Part shown: positions 276 through 41,866 of the stretch, one piece after another | Numbering within the stretch: position 1 is the stretch's first letter | How the letters are laid out: every line of letters starts with the position of its first letter | Source of the DNA: a virus | Strand: one strand, 5' to 3' | Virus record (IMG/VR): IMGVR_UViG_3300042888_002988 | Location: 124,001-188,000 of that record | Length of the DNA: 64,000 bases | Notes under the pieces: model-generated | The model's database searches: none | What the model was told of the DNA's origin: nothing | What the model saw: only the letters and a program-made list of their open reading frames with translations | Position numbers and translations under genes: made by a program

Positions 276-3200
276 ATCCCTACGACCAATACCCCGTCGA
301 TTACACCGGATACGGCCCCGCCGGCACCGGTGGCGCACCGACGCTGCAGGAGCTGCAGAGGCACCAGCGCAGCCGCCACATGACCACCCGCATGGCCCAG
401 GCGGCCGGGTTCCTGGATCCGGTGGCTCAGGCCGCGGCGATGAAGATCACCAAGGGCGTCATCGGCGGTTCGCCGAGCCCGGACGCGCTGCGGCGCGCCA
501 TGTTCAACTCGTCCACCGGTCAGATGGCGCAGGACGCGGCCATGGTCGGTCGGGCGTCCGGGATGCTGGGTCAGGGTGACCCGATCACCGCCGCATCCAA
601 CATCATGCAGGGCGTGGCCGGTGGTGGCTTCCGCACCACCATGGGCGGAAACAATTCCTACGGCACGGGACCGGTGAGCGGAAATGGCAACATCTCCGAG
701 CATGTGTCCATGGCCTTCATGAAGGGCATCATGCAGGACATGACCGGCGGCAAGGGTGACGGCAGTCGCACCAACGGCTTCAACGTCGAGGAGGTTTCGC
801 AACTGTTCAAGACCTACGCGCAGCGCGGCGGCATCGGTCGCATCGCGCACATCCAGCAGGGGGCCGGCATCGGCACACGACTTTCTTCTGCCGCAGCAAA
901 CGCTGTGGATCCGTCGCTGGCGGCGGACATGAAAGGCATCAAGCTGGAAGGCAGCGAGAAAGACCAGATCGCACAGTTGGAGGGTATCATGAATACCACC
1001 GACAACAAAAAGCTGAAGCAGGAGCTGGACAACGTCCTCAAGGCGCCGGCCGCTCTCATCATCAACAACGACGAGAAGCAGCGCGTCACCGGCTTCATGA
1101 AGAACATGACCGAGAGCCTGGCGGGCATGGCCGACATCTACGGCGAGCTGTCCGCCCCCGAACTGCAGCAAAAGCTCGAATCTATTTCCGGCATGCGCAT
1201 CACCAACCGGGAGCAGCTCGCCAAGGCCACTGCCATGACCAACCAGCTGCGCGGTGCGGCAGTGGTGAGCGGTATGGACCCACGGGCCTTCATGGACTGG
1301 TCCGGCGACATGCAGGCACAGCTCCGCGGCGACGTGGCCAATGTCCTCGGCGCTGACGGCCGCCACAGCGGCATCGTGAGCGGAGCCACCGCCGGCACGC
1401 ACAACCGCCTCATGGTCGACTCGGCCCTCGCCGGTAAAGCGGCGAACCAAGCCGTGGCGCAGGGCAGAGAGCTTGGCCTCAACCTGACAGACGCCCCGGA
1501 CATGACGGAGATCTACGAGGACAAGCGCCAGGGCACCATGCAGTTCATGGAGCGCTACGGCGGCGTGACCGCGGCCCAGGGCGGCCTGCAGTATCTGAGC
1601 GGCGACAAGCGCAAGGAGGTGGAGGGACTGATGGACAAGTTCAAGAATACCACCGACGCGGAGGAGCGCACGAACCTCAACAGCGAGATCGAAGCACTGC
1701 TCGGCGGCGAGAAGGGCTTCGACGCGTTCAAGGCCAGCCGCACCGGCAAGATCATGATGGCCAACTCCCAGAGCGACCCGGCCAATGCCAGGGAGATGGA
1801 GCGTATGGTCTCGGAGGGACGCGGCGACGCTGTGAGCATGGACCTACTGAACGACCAGCTGTCCGAGATGGGCATCAAGGACGCCGAGGGAACCGGCAAG
1901 ACGCTGTTCAAGGGTCTCGGCCTGAAGGGCATGGGCGACTTGCTGCGGACGTCTAAGACGGAGTTCACGCTGGATGAGAACGGCAAGTCCACGGATCGGA
2001 AGCTCACCGGGGCTGATCGTCTGACGATGCAGCGCAATCAGCTCGCCACCGCTGGCATCAAGGGCGCGGAGGCCGACAAGCTGCTGGGTCAGTTCTTCGA
2101 CAAGGACGGACGGGTAAAGGACGAGGAAGGTTTCAACAAGGCCGCCGAGTTGGTGAATATGGCCGGCTACGGTTCGACGGCGTCGGCCTATGACCGCGCC
2201 AACCTCGGCCAATCCAGGTTGGAGATGATCGGCGCAGACGACAACCGCATGAAGATGACGGCGGGCGACAAGGGCATTTCGTTCAACAGCATCGCCACCG
2301 CGATCGCTACCGGCGACGTCAAGAGCAACTCTACGGACCCGGAGGTCATGGCGCTGATGTTGGACTCTCTCGGTGAAGCGAACATGCCGTTGGTGGCGAA
2401 CAAGGATGGCAAAATGGTGGCCGCCGACACCCAATACAAGACCGGCATCAATCTCAAGGACGGCCTCAACAAGGAGAACATGGGCGAGCTTTCCAAGATC
2501 TTCGGCAAGGACCTCAATCTTCACAAGAAGATGACCGATCCGCGGACTGGTAAGAAGTTCGAGAGCGAAGAGGAATTCATGAAGGCGACCCAGGGGGACG
2601 CCGGCAAGAACCTGTTGGCCGACGCGATCGAGGTGATGCAGACCGACAAGGAATACCTGGGTATGAACCTGCGGGGCAAGGTCGACTCGATGAGCGTCAT
2701 GACCGACTCGGCCAAGGACTCGCTGACGAACAGCGGCGCGCTGGAGAAAAAGTTCAAGCAGGCCGGCGGCGCCATGATGCTCGCGCGTGCCAGTGGTTTG
2801 GACGATAAATACAAGACGGGCCTCATGGACTCGTTGCAGGCCGGGAAGGCTCCTGACCTGGGCTTCTACTCCGCCGGCAAGCACGATAAGATCACCGAGA
2901 AAGACGGCGTGAAGGATGCCAAGTTCGGTGGTGAGTCCTTCGGTCGCATGATGAGCATGAGCGGCGCGATCGGCTCGTCGGACGCCGAGGGACTGGCTGC
3001 GCTATCGTCACTCGACGAGGGCGGCGCTATGACCGGCAAGCTAGAAGAGCAGATGGAGGCGCTGAAAGCGGCCAAGAAAGCTGGCGCTACGACGGCTACC
3101 TACAAAGGCATGGATGGTGAGGAGAAGTCCTCCAACATCGACGATCTTATCAAACAATTCAAGGCGACCATCGACAAGCTGGCCGGTCAGCAAATGGCCG

Positions 3201-3286
3201 AGGCGGGCGCAACCGTTACACAGCAGATCATCGTTCAAGGCGACATCCGCGTCACCGGCGAGATCGCCAAAACAGAGAAGGACTAA
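272..3286 (+). CDS. Probable tail tape measure protein
   Basis: This 1004-residue protein is rich in Ala, Gly, Met and Lys and looks mostly alpha-helical, with long amphipathic stretches. No enzyme motif is visible. A tape measure protein runs down the tail tube, sets tail length and is ejected during DNA entry. Length, composition and its place at the head of a run of tail genes support the call. At the usual rough scale of 0.15 nm per residue it would specify a tail of about 150 nm. The C-terminal 25 residues look beta-like. Other large structural roles remain possible because no tape-measure domain is recognised directly. Confidence 0.55.
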   Translation: MNPYDQYPVDYTGYGPAGTGGAPTLQELQRHQRSRHMTTRMAQAAGFLDPVAQAAAMKITKGVIGGSPSPDALRRAMFNSSTGQMAQDAAMVGRASGMLGQGDPITAASNIMQGVAGGGFRTTMGGNNSYGTGPVSGNGNISEHVSMAFMKGIMQDMTGGKGDGSRTNGFNVEEVSQLFKTYAQRGGIGRIAHIQQGAGIGTRLSSAAANAVDPSLAADMKGIKLEGSEKDQIAQLEGIMNTTDNKKLKQELDNVLKAPAALIINNDEKQRVTGFMKNMTESLAGMADIYGELSAPELQQKLESISGMRITNREQLAKATAMTNQLRGAAVVSGMDPRAFMDWSGDMQAQLRGDVANVLGADGRHSGIVSGATAGTHNRLMVDSALAGKAANQAVAQGRELGLNLTDAPDMTEIYEDKRQGTMQFMERYGGVTAAQGGLQYLSGDKRKEVEGLMDKFKNTTDAEERTNLNSEIEALLGGEKGFDAFKASRTGKIMMANSQSDPANAREMERMVSEGRGDAVSMDLLNDQLSEMGIKDAEGTGKTLFKGLGLKGMGDLLRTSKTEFTLDENGKSTDRKLTGADRLTMQRNQLATAGIKGAEADKLLGQFFDKDGRVKDEEGFNKAAELVNMAGYGSTASAYDRANLGQSRLEMIGADDNRMKMTAGDKGISFNSIATAIATGDVKSNSTDPEVMALMLDSLGEANMPLVANKDGKMVAADTQYKTGINLKDGLNKENMGELSKIFGKDLNLHKKMTDPRTGKKFESEEEFMKATQGDAGKNLLADAIEVMQTDKEYLGMNLRGKVDSMSVMTDSAKDSLTNSGALEKKFKQAGGAMMLARASGLDDKYKTGLMDSLQAGKAPDLGFYSAGKHDKITEKDGVKDAKFGGESFGRMMSMSGAIGSSDAEGLAALSSLDEGGAMTGKLEEQMEALKAAKKAGATTATYKGMDGEEKSSNIDDLIKQFKATIDKLAGQQMAEAGATVTQQIIVQGDIRVTGEIAKTEKD

Positions 3287-33067: not shown

Positions 33068-33499
33068 GGGGGCGTTCTGGTTTCGACATGATTGTTGAAG
33101 GCATTACCCGCACGTGGTGGTTGATCGGCAGGCCACCTTAAAAGCCGTTCAAAACAAACAAATGCCAACTCCAACGAGTTCGCGATGACCTCCGCCGAAG
33201 CAGACGCTTTGCTCGCCAATGGTATCGCCGCCCCAACGGGCGTCGAAGCCGGCGCGCTCGCAGCTGCCTAAGCAGACTGTCATCCCACGTGGGTTCCGCC
33301 GGTATACCGGGGCCTGCGCAGGACAACCAATGTATTCCTTAGAGCCAGGTAACACTGGCGGGCAGCCCGGGAAGACGGGATAGGTCTCAAGCCCCGAATG
33401 GTGCGATAGGGTGTCTCGGCCCGATAACTGAGACTAAACGTGTAGAAAGTATGCTTGACGTAATTGTGGACAGGGGTTCGACTCCCCTCGCCTCCACCA
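33068..33499 (+). ncRNA. ssrA: Phage-encoded tmRNA
   Basis: tmRNA rescues stalled ribosomes by acting first as tRNA and then as mRNA for a degradation tag. The 5' end (33068) starts GGGGGCG, followed by TTCTGGTTTCGAC, the conserved tmRNA start. The 3' end has GGACAGGGGTTCGACTCCCC, CGCCTCC and an encoded CCA at 33497-33499. The first seven bases pair fully with CGCCTCC (one G-U). A tag frame from GCC at 33164 to TAA at 33269-33271 encodes 35 residues starting ANSNEFAMTS and ending EAGALAAA. The start with Ala and ALAA-type end match known tags, but 35 residues is long. Size 432 nt, one-piece form. Confidence 0.92.
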
Positions 33500-33507
33500 T
33501 TTCCCAC

Positions 33508-33586
33508 GGCAGGGTAGCTCAGTCTGGTCCAGAGCAACGGGCTCATAATCCGTAGGTCGGTGGTTCGAATCCACCCCCTGCCACCA
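33508..33586 (+). tRNA. tRNA with CAU anticodon (Met or Ile2)
   Basis: A full cloverleaf starts eight bases after the tmRNA end. Acceptor stem GGCAGGG (33508-33514) pairs with CCCTGCC (33576-33582), followed by A and an encoded CCA. D stem is GCTC/GAGC. The anticodon stem ACGGG/TCCGT holds loop CTCATAA with CAT at 33544-33546. T arm is GGTGG/CCACC with TTCGAAT. The G1-C72 pair argues against initiator tRNA. Elongator Met and lysidine-modified Ile cannot be told apart from sequence. Confidence 0.92.
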
Positions 33587-33588
33587 AT

Positions 33589-33657
33589 GCCCGCTCAGTA
33601 TCCCCTGCGCCAGTTTACCCCACGGGGTCTAGCAACGCAGGGGGCAACTGAGCGGGC
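33589..33657 (+). other. Long hairpin after tRNA
   Basis: An 11-bp stem (GCCCGCTCAGT with ACTGAGCGGGC) encloses a second stem CCCCTGCG/CGCAGGGG and a small CCCC/GGGG hairpin. This is a strong structured RNA, not followed by a T run. It may be a processing signal, terminator or small RNA. Confidence 0.7.
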
Positions 33658-33667
33658 GCCATTTTCC

Positions 33668-33688
33668 GGACCCCCTTACCACGGGTCC
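33668..33688 (+). other. Short hairpin in RNA island
   Basis: A 6-bp perfect stem GGACCC/GGGTCC with a nine-base loop sits between two larger hairpins. Confidence 0.6.
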
Positions 33689-33699
33689 CCTCCACAAAC

Positions 33700-33760
33700 G
33701 TCACAGCTCCGCCTGGCATGAAGCCGCGGACTGAGACCCGCTTGGGAGCGGGGCTGTGAC
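33700..33760 (+). other. 13-bp stem hairpin in RNA island
   Basis: The 13-base arm at 33700-33712 (GTCACAGCTCCGC) pairs with 33748-33760 (GCGGGGCTGTGAC) with one T-G wobble. The 35-base loop is G/C-rich and may fold further. No T run follows. Confidence 0.7.
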
Positions 33761-33780
33761 ACAAACATCTTCCCGTATGG

Positions 33781-33872
33781 GAGCCAGGGCTGGTTGCCTA
33801 TCCGATTATCCGCCGCCGTGGGACGCCACGACGGACATCGGTGGGGTAGGGTTCGAGTCCCTCCCTTGGTTC
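33781..33872 (+). ncRNA. Structured RNA with tRNA-like T arm
   Basis: A 9-bp closing helix joins 33781-33789 (GAGCCAGGG) with 33864-33872 (CCTTGGTTC). Inside lie CCGAT/ATCGG (33802-33806 with 33837-33841) and an inner CCG.CGTGG/CCACG.CGG hairpin with a GACG loop. A T-arm-like hairpin with TTCGAGT at about 33852-33858 completes it. It is not a normal cloverleaf and the tail is TCA-like rather than CCA. It may be a degenerate tRNA or a distinct RNA. Confidence 0.45.
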
Positions 33873-33878
33873 ACGATT

Positions 33879-33958
33879 TCGCAGGTAGCTCAGACTGGTA
33901 GAGCATCGGTGCCAACACTTACCGAGGGTCGTAGGTTCAAATCCTACCCTGTGATCCA
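33879..33958 (+). tRNA. tRNA-like gene with 10-nt anticodon loop
   Basis: All arms of a tRNA are present. Acceptor TCGCAGG (33879-33885) pairs with CCTGTGA (33948-33954), followed by T and an encoded CCA. D stem is GCTC/GAGC; T arm is GTAGG/CCTAC with TTCAAAT. The anticodon stem TCGGT/ACCGA, however, encloses ten bases (GCCAACACTT, 33911-33920) instead of seven. A G-U closing pair would leave an eight-base loop. The anticodon cannot be assigned. It may be a frameshift-suppressor type, a recently mutated gene or a tRNA mimic. Confidence 0.65.
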
Positions 33959-35136: not shown

Positions 35137-37113
35137 TCACCCGCCCACGTAGCCGCCATCGAACATGTCGCCCATCCGGGTGCCAAGGTCGTTGGGGATC
35201 GCGATGCCAAACATGGTCCGCAGCTCGTCCATGATCTGCTTGTTCGGGATCAGCGGCTCCTGGTTCACGATGCGCTTCATCATGCAGGCGTAGTTGGTGG
35301 CCATCAGGAAGTCATCCGCCCGAGCCCCGTGCTTGATGTAGCGCATGATCGTCCGGCCCGAGGGCGCCTCGGTGATGTTCCGGCGGACGTTCAAGCAGTC
35401 CAGAGCAAACGAGCTGGAGTCATCCCACCGCGGCCAGGTGATCATCCCGTCCTTGATGTCGGCCAGCACGGCTGAGATCGAGTCCGACCGGTGAAGCGAC
35501 ATGATGTTCGACTCCGGGTGTGGAATGCGATCGAGCATCAGCTTGGTGTCGGTGTATTGGAAGTGGATCAGCATGTTTGTGGGGATCGCGCCGCAGTCCC
35601 GCATGAAGGCATTGTAGTAAGCGCCTCCGCCGTTGTCGGTGCCCATGGCGAACGACTTGAACCGGTTGTGGGCGGCCACGATGGTCTGAGCGACATCGCG
35701 GTAATTCATCCCAGCGTAGCGGTGAGCGTAGAGCAGGTCCATCCGACCCTCAGGAGTCATCCCGTAGATCACGTGCACCGTGTAGGAGAGCTTCGACCGG
35801 TAGGCCGGCTCCCAGTCAGAACCTCCCCAGTCGACGCCGGAGAACACCCTGGTGTAGCGCACGGTCTCCTCGAAGTAATCCGACTGGGTCTTCTTGAAGG
35901 TCTTGTCGGTGCAGCACTTCTTCAGATCCGCCTCGCTGAGCTCGGTCATCCCGGACTCCACCGCGATTCCCCAGATTTCCTGGAGGAACTTTTTGAACTG
36001 ACCATTCTGGGTATACCGTTGGTAATACTGCCAGATGTCCATGAAGCGCTTGCCCTGCGCATACTCCGGCACGATCACCTGCGGAAGGTGGAAGCTCGGC
36101 ATGTTGACGTTGAGCCTTGATCGATCCTCGTGGACGAACTCGCCGGCCATCGGGTTGAGCTTGATATGCTTGTTGTCCGGGCAGCGCAGGCCTTCCGGTG
36201 AGACCATCATGTTCGGAATGATTTCCGGATCCCCCAGGGAGTGGAACTTCTTCGGGCAGGAACAGGGGATGTGCCATACGCCACGGCTGCCTAGCCGATA
36301 CTGTGCTTCGAGGCAGGTATCGAGGTCCTTGGAGGTGCCGGCGAAGATGGTGAGCCGGTCGTCGGGGAAGGCTTTCTGGACCTGCTCGATCTCAGGTAAA
36401 TGCTCGGCATCGAAATCCTGCGCTTCGTCTATCAGGACTGATGGAACCGAGTTGCCCCGAATTTTACTGGGGTCAGTTAGAATGTGCATTAACTTCAGAG
36501 AACCGCCGGACGGTGCCTCTTTGTAATACATGTTATTGCGGTAGCCGCGGCTCGCAAAGTAGGACGGAGGACATACTGATCCGCGCTGCATGTCGAGCAT
36601 TTTATCAGCGATCGTCTTGCTCTGCTCCTTGAGCGGAGTCAGGTAAATCGCGCGGTAGTTCGGGAACACGCAGAACTTGAGAAGCTCCGCTCCGCACAGC
36701 CCAGTCGAATTATGACTGGCGATCCCGGACGTGAAATACGTGTGCTCTTTGGAATCCACCCGCAGATCGAACAGCTCGCGCAGTTCCCCCAGGGGCTCGC
36801 AGCTGGTGACCATCTGCCAATCGTGCTCAGTCAATACCCAGTCACCCACCAGGATCTGATCCACCTGCGTGAAGCCACTCGTCCCGTTCACCAAATGCTT
36901 GCCGGCGCACTCCAGCGTGAATTCACGCGTCTGGAGTCGCCATACCGGCATGGGAATAGTGCGATAGGCATGTGTGACTTTTACAAAACCACCCCCAGGA
37001 GCGGCGACTTTTATGTCAAGATGCTCCAAGGATCGTTCCTCAGCTATTTCGTTTTCCAGCAGCACGGAGTCCACCGTAAGCCGCGAACGGAGCAGCGTCA
37101 AGATGATGACCAC
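35137..37113 (-). CDS. terL: Large terminase C-terminal half with C-intein
   Basis: This 658-residue precursor would contribute the C-terminal part of the ATPase-nuclease that packages DNA. Residues 1 to about 135 are a C-intein: TLECAGKHLVNG and VGDWV form block B-like text, and FDLRVDSKEHTYFTSGIASH then N135 form blocks F and G. Ser136 is the +1 residue. The extein resumes STGLCGAELLKF, completing Walker A begun in the other half. VLIDEAQDF is Walker B. SGVDWGGS, GTDNGGGAYYNAF and ADDFLMATNY supply nuclease Asp residues. Start is GTG at 37113, though a later GTG is possible. The N-half lies upstream at 38170-38601, with an unrelated gene between. Confidence 0.85.
   Translation of the reverse strand: MVIILTLLRSRLTVDSVLLENEIAEERSLEHLDIKVAAPGGGFVKVTHAYRTIPMPVWRLQTREFTLECAGKHLVNGTSGFTQVDQILVGDWVLTEHDWQMVTSCEPLGELRELFDLRVDSKEHTYFTSGIASHNSTGLCGAELLKFCVFPNYRAIYLTPLKEQSKTIADKMLDMQRGSVCPPSYFASRGYRNNMYYKEAPSGGSLKLMHILTDPSKIRGNSVPSVLIDEAQDFDAEHLPEIEQVQKAFPDDRLTIFAGTSKDLDTCLEAQYRLGSRGVWHIPCSCPKKFHSLGDPEIIPNMMVSPEGLRCPDNKHIKLNPMAGEFVHEDRSRLNVNMPSFHLPQVIVPEYAQGKRFMDIWQYYQRYTQNGQFKKFLQEIWGIAVESGMTELSEADLKKCCTDKTFKKTQSDYFEETVRYTRVFSGVDWGGSDWEPAYRSKLSYTVHVIYGMTPEGRMDLLYAHRYAGMNYRDVAQTIVAAHNRFKSFAMGTDNGGGAYYNAFMRDCGAIPTNMLIHFQYTDTKLMLDRIPHPESNIMSLHRSDSISAVLADIKDGMITWPRWDDSSSFALDCLNVRRNITEAPSGRTIMRYIKHGARADDFLMATNYACMMKRIVNQEPLIPNKQIMDELRTMFGIAIPNDLGTRMGDMFDGGYVGG
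36709..37113 (-). other. C-intein (IntC) segment
   Basis: Codons for about 135 residues end at Asn (36709-36711), directly before the +1 Ser. The His-Asn end, the block B and block F/G text and a Walker A interruption identify it. It has no endonuclease domain. It resembles the atypically split terminase inteins known from environmental viruses, such as AceL-TerL, in which the N part is very short. Confidence 0.85.
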
Positions 37114-37304
37114 GCAAGCAGATGCGGCGTGGTGTCACTTATAAAGCGCAGGAAGAACGGCTCGCGCTGGAGCGACCGTGCGCACCAATCCCCATTACGG
37201 ACGAAGGGGGCGCCGCATGTTTCCATAGGCTTGCAGCCTACTCATGCCGTGTTATTGTCGTCCTCAGCCACACATTGAACGCTACCCAACCACTACCCAC
37301 ACAC
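37114..37304. promoter_or_regulatory. Divergent region between terminase half and inserted gene
   Basis: About 190 bases separate the minus-strand start at 37113 from the + start at 37305. An in-frame extension of the + gene covers it but is less likely coding. It contains tataaa at about 37140 and an A/C-rich leader. It presumably holds promoters for one or both genes. Confidence 0.4.
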
Positions 37305-38189
37305 ATGCAATGGGCTCCTCGCCCAGCTCCCTACCTGCCCGGGCTTCACAGCGCCCAGGCGACGAACAGCAACGAGCGGATACCGTTCGTCTCTGTGTAT
37401 CGCACCAAAGCCAAGGCCGCAGCGGATTGGATCCGTGGCTGCAAGCTTGCCACCGGCACATCCTCGTTCTTCCTGCGCAGCGACGAGCAGGACGTGAAGC
37501 TCTACGATTACCGCGGCAGGTTCGTGAAGAACCTGGAGGCACCCACGTTCAAGGCCACGCCGGAGCTCGAAGACAGCATCCCAGTGGATCGCGATTTCAT
37601 GGTGCATGAGGCGCGGGAGGCCACCAAGCAGCCTCAGCTGTCGCTGCTCGTCTGCGCGGAAGACCACGCCGGCGCCAGCGCTGCCGACCATTCGAACTTC
37701 GTCATTGTCTGCAGGCGCATGCTCATCGAGGCCTCCGCCGCGGACCTGGAGCATTTCTATGTAGTGGAGAGCCAGCGCTGGCCGTGCCGCATGACGGGCA
37801 TCTACGCAAACGTCTCCGCGCTGTCGCCGGCCATGCAGGACATCTACCTGGAGCGATTCAAGTGGCTCAGCAACAGCTGGCCGCTGAATGCCCGGCACCA
37901 CCTGGACATGCTGGCCGACCGGCTGGTGCGATCCAGGTCGCGCTACGTGACCGACCTACTGCAGGACTGCGGACACGCCGCCCGTATGCCGCAGGACCTG
38001 ATTCTGACCCTGCAGTCGAAGTGGATGCTGGCGTCGCCGGGATCCAAGTATCGGTTCGCGCAGCACTTGGTGGAGACGCTCCGGGAAGGTCTGCTGTTCG
38101 AAATCAACCAGGCTGAGGTGTTCGCGCCGTCCATCGTGGACAGCCACGGGGCGGCGGTCGTCAAGGAATTCAGGCAAATCCTGCGCTGA
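37305..38189 (+). CDS. Unknown protein inserted within the split terminase
   Basis: This 294-residue protein is encoded opposite to the two terminase halves and lies between them; its last 20 bases overlap the end of the N-half. The ATG at 37305 follows the A/C-rich leader caaccactacccacacac, like other genes here. The sequence has no HNH, GIY-YIG, LAGLIDADG or VSR-like motif that I can see. In other fractured genes the gap holds a free homing endonuclease, so this could be a new nuclease family or an unrelated passenger. It has mixed helical content and several Cys. Function unknown. Confidence 0.65.
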   Translation: MQWAPRPAPYLPGLHSAQATNSNERIPFVSVYRTKAKAAADWIRGCKLATGTSSFFLRSDEQDVKLYDYRGRFVKNLEAPTFKATPELEDSIPVDRDFMVHEAREATKQPQLSLLVCAEDHAGASAADHSNFVIVCRRMLIEASAADLEHFYVVESQRWPCRMTGIYANVSALSPAMQDIYLERFKWLSNSWPLNARHHLDMLADRLVRSRSRYVTDLLQDCGHAARMPQDLILTLQSKWMLASPGSKYRFAQHLVETLREGLLFEINQAEVFAPSIVDSHGAAVVKEFRQILR

Positions 38190-38268
38190 CCGGCAGTCCC
38201 TGATCGAAAATTGCGCGCAGAGTCACACGTCCGTGATTGGTCTCCACGGGCGTGTCGCCGTCGGCGCA
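38170..38268 (-). other. N-intein (IntN), 32 residues
   Basis: The segment runs from Cys112 (codon 38266-38268) to the stop. The very short length, the block A sequence and insertion inside a P-loop fit atypically split terminase inteins. Confidence 0.85.
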
Positions 38269-38601
38269 CTTGCCCACCTGCCGGCCCGCTTTCAGGGTGA
38301 TCACACTGCCCGGGGTCATGGCTGTCATGGCGAACATGAAGGGGCGGGAGCTGAAATCCAGTGGTGTGTCGAACGGATACCTGGGGAAGAACCTGGGGAT
38401 CAGCAGACCGAAGTTGAAACCGCACAGCGGCAGCAAAGCACCCTCGGCATCCATGATGTCCTGGCGAGTGGCCTTGCCATTTGAGTAGTCCGCTGATACT
38501 GTGTCGATGCGCTTCATGGCGGCGGTGACCAACGCCGCCTGCTGGGGGTCCTTCCTCAGCTCGCTGATGAGGTCATAAACAAATTTACCTTGTGCCGCCA
38601 T
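38170..38601 (-). CDS. terL: Large terminase N-terminal half with N-intein
   Basis: This 143-residue precursor has an N-extein (1-111) that ends in LKAGRQVGK, the first part of the Walker A motif. Cys112 begins CADGDTPVETNHGRV, a typical intein block A. Only 32 intein residues follow before the stop (38170-38172). Splicing with the C half would give GRQVGK-STGLCG, a complete Walker A, and a terminase of about 634 residues. Neither half can work alone. Its start codon at 38601 overlaps the start of a + strand ORF at 38600 (shared CATG), so regulation of the two may be linked. Confidence 0.88.
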   Translation of the reverse strand: MAAQGKFVYDLISELRKDPQQAALVTAAMKRIDTVSADYSNGKATRQDIMDAEGALLPLCGFNFGLLIPRFFPRYPFDTPLDFSSRPFMFAMTAMTPGSVITLKAGRQVGKCADGDTPVETNHGRVTLRAIFDQGLPVSAGFA

Positions 38602-38791
38602 GCCTGAATCTAAATCTACTGTGTTGCTGGAGAATGAGCGAGCTGACCGCTTCGGCTCGGCCCGCGCAGGAGCTTACTTGATCTGGACACGCGAGCAAGG
38701 GGAGAAACTACGAGAAATTCAAGATGAGCAATCCCAACCAGAACCCGAATCCCCAACCGCCCAAGAAATCCGCCAAAAATTCAACTCCTGA
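38600..38791 (+). CDS. Small ORF divergent from terminase N-half
   Basis: This 63-residue ORF starts in the CATG shared with the minus-strand terminase start, so there is no space for a separate leader. It overlaps the next gene by 68 bases in another frame. The middle (AGAYLIWTREQGEKLREIQ) looks protein-like. Real expression is uncertain. Confidence 0.4.
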   Translation: MPESKSTVLLENERADRFGSARAGAYLIWTREQGEKLREIQDEQSQPEPESPTAQEIRQKFNS

Positions 38792-41317: not shown

Positions 41318-41866
41318 ATGCCCAAGCCCAGTGCCAAGCTGCTCGCAGAAGGATTCTTCGACTTCAAAAAGCACTCCCCTGATGGGAGGTGCTGGGTCAA
41401 AGGATGCCAGCGCGCGTCTCAGCATGACCTGTCGTTGTGCCATATGCATGAGATGCGTCGCTGGCGTGCCAGCAAGAAGAAGACTGCGGATTACTGCACG
41501 TTGCGCGACCATGCGCAGGCGAGGGGCATCAAGTTCGAAATCACGCTGGATTACTGGCGTGGACTGGTGGACGCATTCGGGTTTTACAACAAGGAGAATG
41601 ACGACCTGGTGCTCTCGATCGACCGCGTGGATCCCACGCGCGGCTACGTCGAGGGCAACATGCGCGTCATTACGACAGACCTGAACGTCTACAAATCGCA
41701 CCGGGAGCGATACCTGCCGGAGCACGTGCAGCACATGCTTGAACGCAAGCGTGATCAGCTGCGCGCGGAGCAGGCCAAGTATTTGGCGCTGGACGCCCCC
41801 AACGAAGAGTATTGGGAAGAACCGGACGAGAGCCCGGAAGTAAACGACGATAACTGCCCGTTTTAG
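41318..41866 (+). CDS. HNH-like endonuclease-like protein
   Basis: This 182-residue protein starts five bases after the sbcD stop. CWVKGC at about 25-30, with C-x2-H near 41-44, forms a possible zinc site. LVLSIDRVDPTRGYVEGNMR at about 96-115 is typical of HNH nucleases (SIDR-D-x3-GYV-x-GN). The usual HNH His pair is not obvious. It could be a homing-type endonuclease inserted between sbcD and sbcC, or a structural DNA-binding relative. Function as an active nuclease is uncertain because key residues may be missing. Confidence 0.6.
   Translation: MPKPSAKLLAEGFFDFKKHSPDGRCWVKGCQRASQHDLSLCHMHEMRRWRASKKKTADYCTLRDHAQARGIKFEITLDYWRGLVDAFGFYNKENDDLVLSIDRVDPTRGYVEGNMRVITTDLNVYKSHRERYLPEHVQHMLERKRDQLRAEQAKYLALDAPNEEYWEEPDESPEVNDDNCPF

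What the first reader, a model, noticed from the sequence alone, without database searches (positions are those of the whole stretch)
35137..38601. Large terminase split inside Walker A by a split intein, with an opposite-strand gene between the halves
The N half ends GRQVGK followed by Cys and an intein block A. The C half starts with intein blocks and ends His-Asn followed by Ser. Joined, the exteins give GRQVGK-STGLCG, an intact P-loop, and a terminase of about 634 residues. The N-intein is only 32 residues, as in atypically split TerL inteins such as AceL-TerL. A 1.06-kb gap holds a + strand gene that overlaps the N-half stop. A packaging motor that depends on trans-splicing, interrupted in its active-site loop, is rare.
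Basis: partly seen in the sequence, partly recalled or inferred. Interest (0 to 1): 0.92.

Follow-up and report, generated by a model that had tools for sequence, protein, structure and literature searches.

The report
Phage packaging motor in two pieces
In this large uncultured phage the DNA-packaging motor gene is cut in two inside its ATP-binding loop, and the halves carry intein fragments that should weld the two proteins together; many other phages do this too, but here the gene between the halves points the opposite way and matches nothing known.

Summary
The large terminase (TerL) is encoded as an N half (38170-38601, minus) ending GRQVGK|C + 32-aa IntN, and a C half (best start GTG 37065, minus, to 35137) beginning with a ~119-aa IntC ending SHN|S. 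Joined, the exteins give a 634-aa TerL with intact Walker A, Walker B and nuclease acidic residues. Four IMG/VR contigs (two lineages, 77% identical) keep the same layout; both intein pieces are under purifying selection, and IntC matches Walker-A TerL inteins of other phages (E=1e-16), so it is not a sequencing error. The framing needs correcting: AceL-TerL is inserted elsewhere in TerL, K|S/T is the classic P-loop intein site, and split short-IntN inteins there are common (about 30 distinct loci in one IMG/VR scan, plus isolates Atu_ph07 and vB_VmeM-32). In 19 of 19 such IMG/VR loci with a gene between the halves, that gene is on the terL strand, and most of those examined look like homing endonucleases. 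The window's gene is on the opposite strand, co-oriented with the flanking operon, conserved (51% identity, dN/dS 0.35) and without detectable relatives outside this group. Verdict: new variant of a known kind, the 'fractured' split-intein gene. Splicing itself is inferred, not shown.

The parts
38269..38601 (-). TerL N-extein, 111 aa, ends at the Walker A Lys (GRQVGK)
   Evidence: ORF list; 69% identical in L002, dN/dS 0.16; only significant window hit of an N-extein+IntN profile
38170..38268 (-). IntN, 32 aa (CADGDTPVETNHGRVTLRAIFDQGLPVSAGFA) plus stop codon
   Evidence: block A CxxGDTxV right after GK; conserved in L002-L005, dN/dS 0.13; alignment with other TerL inteins
37275..38189 (+). 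intervening gene on the opposite strand, conserved part from TTG 37275 (longest ORF from ATG 37122); function unknown
   Evidence: 51% identical in L002, dN/dS 0.35; this frame scores best of six; no family hits
37190..37209 (+). 20-bp sequence CCCCATTACGGACGAAGGGG, identical in all relatives, between the intervening gene and the C half
   Evidence: one copy in the window; in IMG/VR only in the four sister contigs; alignment. Function unknown
37073..37101 (-). possible promoter of the C half: TTGACG, 17 nt, TACGGT (weak)
   Evidence: TTGACGCT conserved in L002/L004; read by eye, not reported by the consensus scan
36709..37065 (-). IntC, ~119 aa, ends ASHN
   Evidence: profile of Walker-A TerL inteins E=1.1e-16; tblastn to Vibrio phage TerL inteins E=3e-9; dN/dS 0.22
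35137..36708 (-). TerL C-extein, 523 aa from Ser+1 (STGLCG), plus stop codon; Walker B VLIDEAQ and nuclease acidic residues
   Evidence: phrog_2 E=2.8e-10; tblastn to TerL of Salmonella phage Arash E=3e-19; 79% identical in L002; motifs read from the sequence

Best explanation
A naturally split class 1 intein with a short IntN and long IntC sits at the K|S position of the TerL Walker A motif. The two terL halves are made as separate proteins; IntN (32 aa) docks on IntC (~119 aa) to complete the Hint fold; Cys1 makes the thioester, Ser+1 attacks it, and the terminal Asn (after His) cyclises, joining GRQVGK to STGLCG and restoring the P-loop. Until then neither half should bind ATP, so packaging should depend on trans-splicing. 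The locus is a 'fractured gene': a mini-intein TerL opened in the loop after the first intein helix, with an extra gene between the halves. In relatives that gene is usually a same-strand homing endonuclease; in this lineage it is an opposite-strand gene of unknown function, probably cargo, a replacement, or an unrecognised homing endonuclease. Shown: layout, conservation, selection, IntC homology, one terL per record. Inferred: splicing chemistry, dependence of packaging on it, and the history of the locus.
For: Junction residues and intact joined motifs. Same layout in four contigs, two lineages. Purifying selection on IntN and IntC. IntC profile hit E=1.1e-16 and N half hit E=0.0036. Contiguous mini-intein at the same site in Det7 and relatives and split ones in Atu_ph07 and vB_VmeM-32. 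About 30 distinct split loci at this site in IMG/VR, 19 with a gene between the halves. Contiguous TerL inteins splice in reporter assays (PMC5050341).
Against: No splicing data. IntN alone is too short for a strong score. Pfam and PDB intein hits are weak. Block B lacks the usual Thr (CAGKH), though other Walker-A TerL inteins share this. AlphaFold models were too poor to show the Hint fold. RNA splicing of the gap is not formally excluded.
Confidence: 0.9

Rival explanations
1. RNA splicing: the gap is an intron, as in ICP1 terL, removed from the mRNA to give a contiguous mini-intein TerL that then splices in cis.
For: ICP1 terL is spliced at the RNA level with a homing endonuclease gene next to it (PMC10448857).
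Against: No Rfam match in the region. IntN has its own conserved stop and IntC its own conserved start. In vB_VmeM-32 the halves lie ~79 kb apart on opposite strands, so this intein type does work in trans arrangements (splicing there also not shown).
Confidence: 0.05
2. The halves work as two separate polypeptides without splicing, or the packaging ATPase is supplied by another gene and this terL is decaying.
For: A ribonucleotide reductase split by a homing endonuclease keeps its function as two peptides (cited in PMC10448857).
Against: The break is inside the P-loop; intein residues are conserved and under purifying selection; no other terL found.
Confidence: 0.04
3. Assembly or sequencing error splitting one ORF.
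For: None specific.
Against: Same layout in contigs from four other IMG/VR datasets, 23% diverged in protein; all parts under purifying selection.
Confidence: 0.01

Closest known systems
Walker-A (TerL1-a) TerL inteins and the Kuttervirus TerL mini-intein (Maynard PMC3868846, Det7)
   Same: Insertion between the invariant Lys and Ser/Thr of the TerL P-loop; aligned IntC with the same [CA]AxxH block B
   Different: Contiguous, 159 aa in Det7; here split after the first helix with a gene between
Split Walker-A TerL in Agrobacterium phage Atu_ph07 and Vibrio phage vB_VmeM-32
   Same: Same site, same split position, IntN 42 and 34 aa
   Different: Atu_ph07 halves are adjacent and Ser1/Thr+1; vB_VmeM-32 halves are ~79 kb apart on opposite strands; neither has a gene like this one between them
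AceL-TerL and GOS-TerL atypical split inteins (PMC11766414)
   Same: Short IntN (25 and 37 aa), split after the first helix, in TerL
   Different: AceL site is TEFE|C...HN|CEFLGS, not Walker A; +1 is Cys, here Ser; separate intein clade
Fractured genes with split inteins (Dassa 2009, not held here; MIJ3 PolB, PMC6892783)
   Same: Essential gene split inside an intein with a free-standing gene between the halves
   Different: There, and in the sister loci examined here, the gene is mostly a recognisable homing endonuclease; here it is an opposite-strand orphan

Membership tests
Class 1 split intein | Cys/Ser at position 1, terminal Asn, Cys/Ser/Thr at +1 | tested here: met
   Cys1, HN, Ser+1 in window and L002-L005
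Class 1 split intein | Block B Thr-x-x-His | tested here: inconclusive
   CAGKH: His present, Thr absent; same variation in other Walker-A TerL inteins
Class 1 split intein | Sequence homology to known inteins | tested here: met
   IntC E=1.1e-16 to a profile of Walker-A TerL inteins; weak to Pfam and PDB inteins
Class 1 split intein | Protein trans-splicing | not testable with these tools
   needs co-expression and mass spectrometry
Walker-A (TerL1-a) TerL intein | Insertion between Walker A Lys and Ser/Thr | tested here: met
   GRQVGK|S; same as Det7, Kuja, Atu_ph07
AceL/GOS-type TerL intein | AceL insertion site and clade | tested here: not met
   AceL at TEFE|CEFLGS; separate clade, 100/100
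AceL/GOS-type TerL intein | Short IntN split after the first helix | tested here: met
   32 aa, same place in the alignment
Fractured gene with free-standing homing endonuclease | Gene between the split halves | tested here: met
   37275-38189, conserved
Fractured gene with free-standing homing endonuclease | Intervening gene is a recognisable homing endonuclease | tested here: not met
   no Pfam, PHROG, NCBIfam, PADLOC or PDB hit; no profile similarity to sister-locus endonucleases
Fractured gene with free-standing homing endonuclease | Homing into an intein-free allele | not testable with these tools
   no intein-free close relative found
Large terminase (TerL) | TerL homology, with Walker A, Walker B and nuclease acidic residues after joining | tested here: met
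   homology by phrog_2 and tblastn; motifs read from the sequence

The most novel reading that the evidence does not exclude
The opposite-strand gene is a new kind of passenger of split-intein loci: either an undescribed homing endonuclease family read from the strand antisense to its host gene, or a non-endonuclease cargo or regulator whose transcription opposes terL and helps time production of the two motor halves.
Probability: 0.4. Interest if true: 0.65.

Novelty: new variant of a known kind. Interest (0 to 1): 0.5.

Why it matters
If splicing occurs as predicted, many phages make their packaging motor only after protein trans-splicing across the ATP-binding loop, and this tolerates adjacent halves, a homing gene between them, an opposite-strand gene, or halves tens of kb apart. 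The dozens of short-IntN Walker-A split inteins found here are candidate protein-labelling tools. The orphan gene raises the question whether something other than an endonuclease can occupy and stabilise such a locus.

Tried and rejected
AlphaFold of the intervening protein (3 sequences, pLDDT 38) and of the C half (7 sequences, pLDDT 34) was too poor to use; a Foldseek search with the first gave nothing. Searches for relatives of the intervening gene in phages, GTDB genomes, PDB and IMG/VR found only the four sister contigs. Rfam scan for an intron: none. Promoter and terminator scan: no more than chance. Search for an intein-free close relative of this TerL: none, so homing could not be tested. 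TerL C-extein against PDB sequences: nothing relevant. Dassa 2009 not held. An HNH/EndoVII-like reading of the EDHAGASAADHSNF motif of the intervening protein was considered and dropped as unsupported.

Full report
What is there. On the minus strand of the window two ORFs encode TerL halves. The N half, 38170-38601, ends KAGRQVGK followed by CADGDTPVETNHGRVTLRAIFDQGLPVSAGFA and a stop. The C half, 35137 to at least 37065, starts with an intein C part ending YFTSGIASHN and continues STGLCGAELL. Joining the exteins gives 111+523=634 residues with Walker A (AGRQVGKS), Walker B (VLIDEAQ) and nuclease acidic motifs, read from the sequence. PHROG and tblastn searches identify TerL (phrog_2 E=2.8e-10; Salmonella phage Arash TerL E=3e-19). 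The whole record is a 200,158-bp virus contig of unknown completeness; neither half has a second copy in it.

It is not an error. Four IMG/VR contigs from other datasets (L002-L005; two lineages, 77% identical to the window in the C half) have the same N half, gap and C half, including the opposite-strand gene and its ~20-nt overlap with the end of IntN. Nei-Gojobori dN/dS between window and L002: N-extein 0.16, IntN 0.13, IntC 0.22, C-extein 0.14, intervening gene 0.35 (dS is near or above 1 in most, so these are rough). Identity of the C half starts at a GTG at 37065; IntC is then ~119 aa and the gap 1,104 bp.

It is an intein. A profile built from Walker-A TerL inteins of other phages (Kuja, VPALA, Serratia phage Kevin, Det7, vB_VmeM-32) and run against all 1,368 window ORFs finds the C half at E=1.1e-16 and nothing else of note. 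A profile of N-extein end plus IntN, which also included Atu_ph07, has the N half as its only significant hit, E=0.0036. IntC also matches Vibrio phage TerL inteins by tblastn (E=3e-9) and, weakly, solved inteins (DnaX mini-intein E=0.017, VidaL E=0.25). Cys1, His-Asn and Ser+1 are class 1 residues. Block B is CAGKH, lacking Thr, but CADDH, CADTH and AADKH in aligned Walker-A TerL inteins suggest a family trait.

How it probably works. IntN docks on IntC, trans-splicing joins Lys to Ser inside the P-loop, and only then can TerL bind ATP and package DNA. Layout, conservation and homology are shown; splicing and its necessity are inferred from intein knowledge and from reports that contiguous TerL inteins splice readily in reporter assays (PMC5050341). 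RNA splicing, known for ICP1 terL (PMC10448857), is the main mechanistic rival; it is disfavoured by the absence of an Rfam intron, the separate conserved stop and start, and relatives whose halves are far apart.

Comparison with known kinds. The K|S/T position in Walker A is the 'classic' P-loop intein site, TerL1-a in mycobacteriophages (PMC5050341). Kuttervirus TerLs (Maynard, PMC3868846; Det7) carry a contiguous mini-intein there (159 aa in Det7). Using the AceL IntC sequence (written from memory and confirmed by 99% identical hits) I found its IMG/VR loci: the intein sits at TEFE|C...HN|CEFLGS, and two loci have a same-strand GIY-YIG-like gene between the halves. In an intein tree the AceL type separates from all Walker-A inteins (100/100), whereas in the extein tree AceL's TerL groups with those of Atu_ph07 and vB_VmeM-32 (94/99). 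Intein kinship thus seems to follow insertion site rather than host gene (several branches are long, so only this main contrast should be used).

Split Walker-A TerL is common. Agrobacterium phage Atu_ph07 has terL ORFs of 123 and 602 aa with the split at GRQLGK|S...HN|T; a text search of its genome paper finds no mention of an intein (PMC6102473). Vibrio phage vB_VmeM-32 has its C half at 1102-3216(+) and its N half near 80 kb on the other strand. Salicola phage SCTP-2 gene 267 starts with an IntC and ends in what looks like the N part of a second intein at Walker B; its other TerL pieces were not located. With Atu_ph07 added, 28 were contiguous and 41 split with a well-scoring N half (32 distinct by a simple identity rule), with IntN of 30-73 aa, mostly 30-43. 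Nineteen distinct split loci have an ORF of at least 90 aa between the halves, and in all nineteen the largest such ORF is on the terL strand. Ten of these proteins were scanned against Pfam and sixteen read by eye: most pair zinc-finger-like N termini with REase-like C termini (IIEFDGDYWHGK; MTES_1575/DUF559) or a GIY-YIG-like domain (MUG113), as in homing endonucleases; several have only a zinc-finger hit or none in Pfam. The classification is automatic; L083 (N half without the GK motif) and L123 (near-duplicate of L117) are doubtful members.

What is unusual here. The window's intervening gene (37275-38189, plus strand) is opposite to terL but co-oriented with nearly all neighbouring genes. 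It is coding in that frame (best of six frames) and conserved, but has no detectable relative outside the group, and profile comparison with the endonucleases of sister loci is negative. With only two lineages its profile is thin, so a distant endonuclease could be missed. The last residues of IntN are encoded antisense to its 3' end. This fits insertion of, or replacement by, a gene cassette in the intein loop; that history is inference. Whether it is a new homing endonuclease, cargo, or a displaced ordinary gene cannot be decided with these data.

Verdict. The site and the split type are known and frequent; the opposite-strand orphan gene makes it a new variant of the fractured-gene arrangement.

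Noticed in passing
KU160494.1 (Vibrio phage vB_VmeM-32): L039 1102-3216 (+) and L045 (record about 80.0-80.3 kb, minus strand): TerL C half with a Walker-A IntC at one end of the record and the N half ending SRQLGK|CVTGDT about 79 kb away on the other strand; the C half also holds a contiguous mini-intein at Walker B (DE|CVSGDT...SHN|CAF). An ORF next to the N half looks TerL-like (NRQLGLTT).
   Followed up: partly
L041 3444-4337 (Salicola phage SCTP-2 gene 267): A TerL middle piece flanked by an IntC (LSHN|TAV) and the N part of a second intein at Walker B (LLY|CLDGETT), so this TerL may be assembled from three pieces; the other pieces were not located.
   Followed up: partly
L036 4971-6242 (Pseudomonas phage PA5oct) and L035 4725-6695 (SCTP-2 gene 204): RecA-like proteins with inteins at the P-loop; PA5oct's is split, starting with an IntC, with endonuclease-like genes on both sides.
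   Followed up: no
L023 891-1478 and L031 4439-5008: AceL-type split TerL loci with a same-strand GIY-YIG-like gene between the halves, while other AceL loci (L021, L022) have the halves adjacent and L028 has a contiguous intein.
   Followed up: partly
window 37190-37209 (+): CCCCATTACGGACGAAGGGG is identical in the window and all four relatives and found nowhere else in IMG/VR; function unknown.
   Followed up: partly
window 38600-38791 (+) and 37030-37065 (-): A small + ORF starting opposite the N-half start (MPESKSTVLLENERADRF, conserved in L002) shares VLLENE with the start of IntC (VLLENEIAEERS); chance or old duplication.
   Followed up: no
window 41318-41866 (+); L002 239-799 (-): A conserved gene between the SbcD-like and SbcC-like genes looks HNH-like by eye (SIDRVDPTRGYVEGNMRVIT).
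   Followed up: no
window 33068-33958 (+): ARAGORN reports two overlapping tmRNA-like calls, a tRNA-Met and an odd tRNA; the tmRNA calls are probably false.
   Followed up: no
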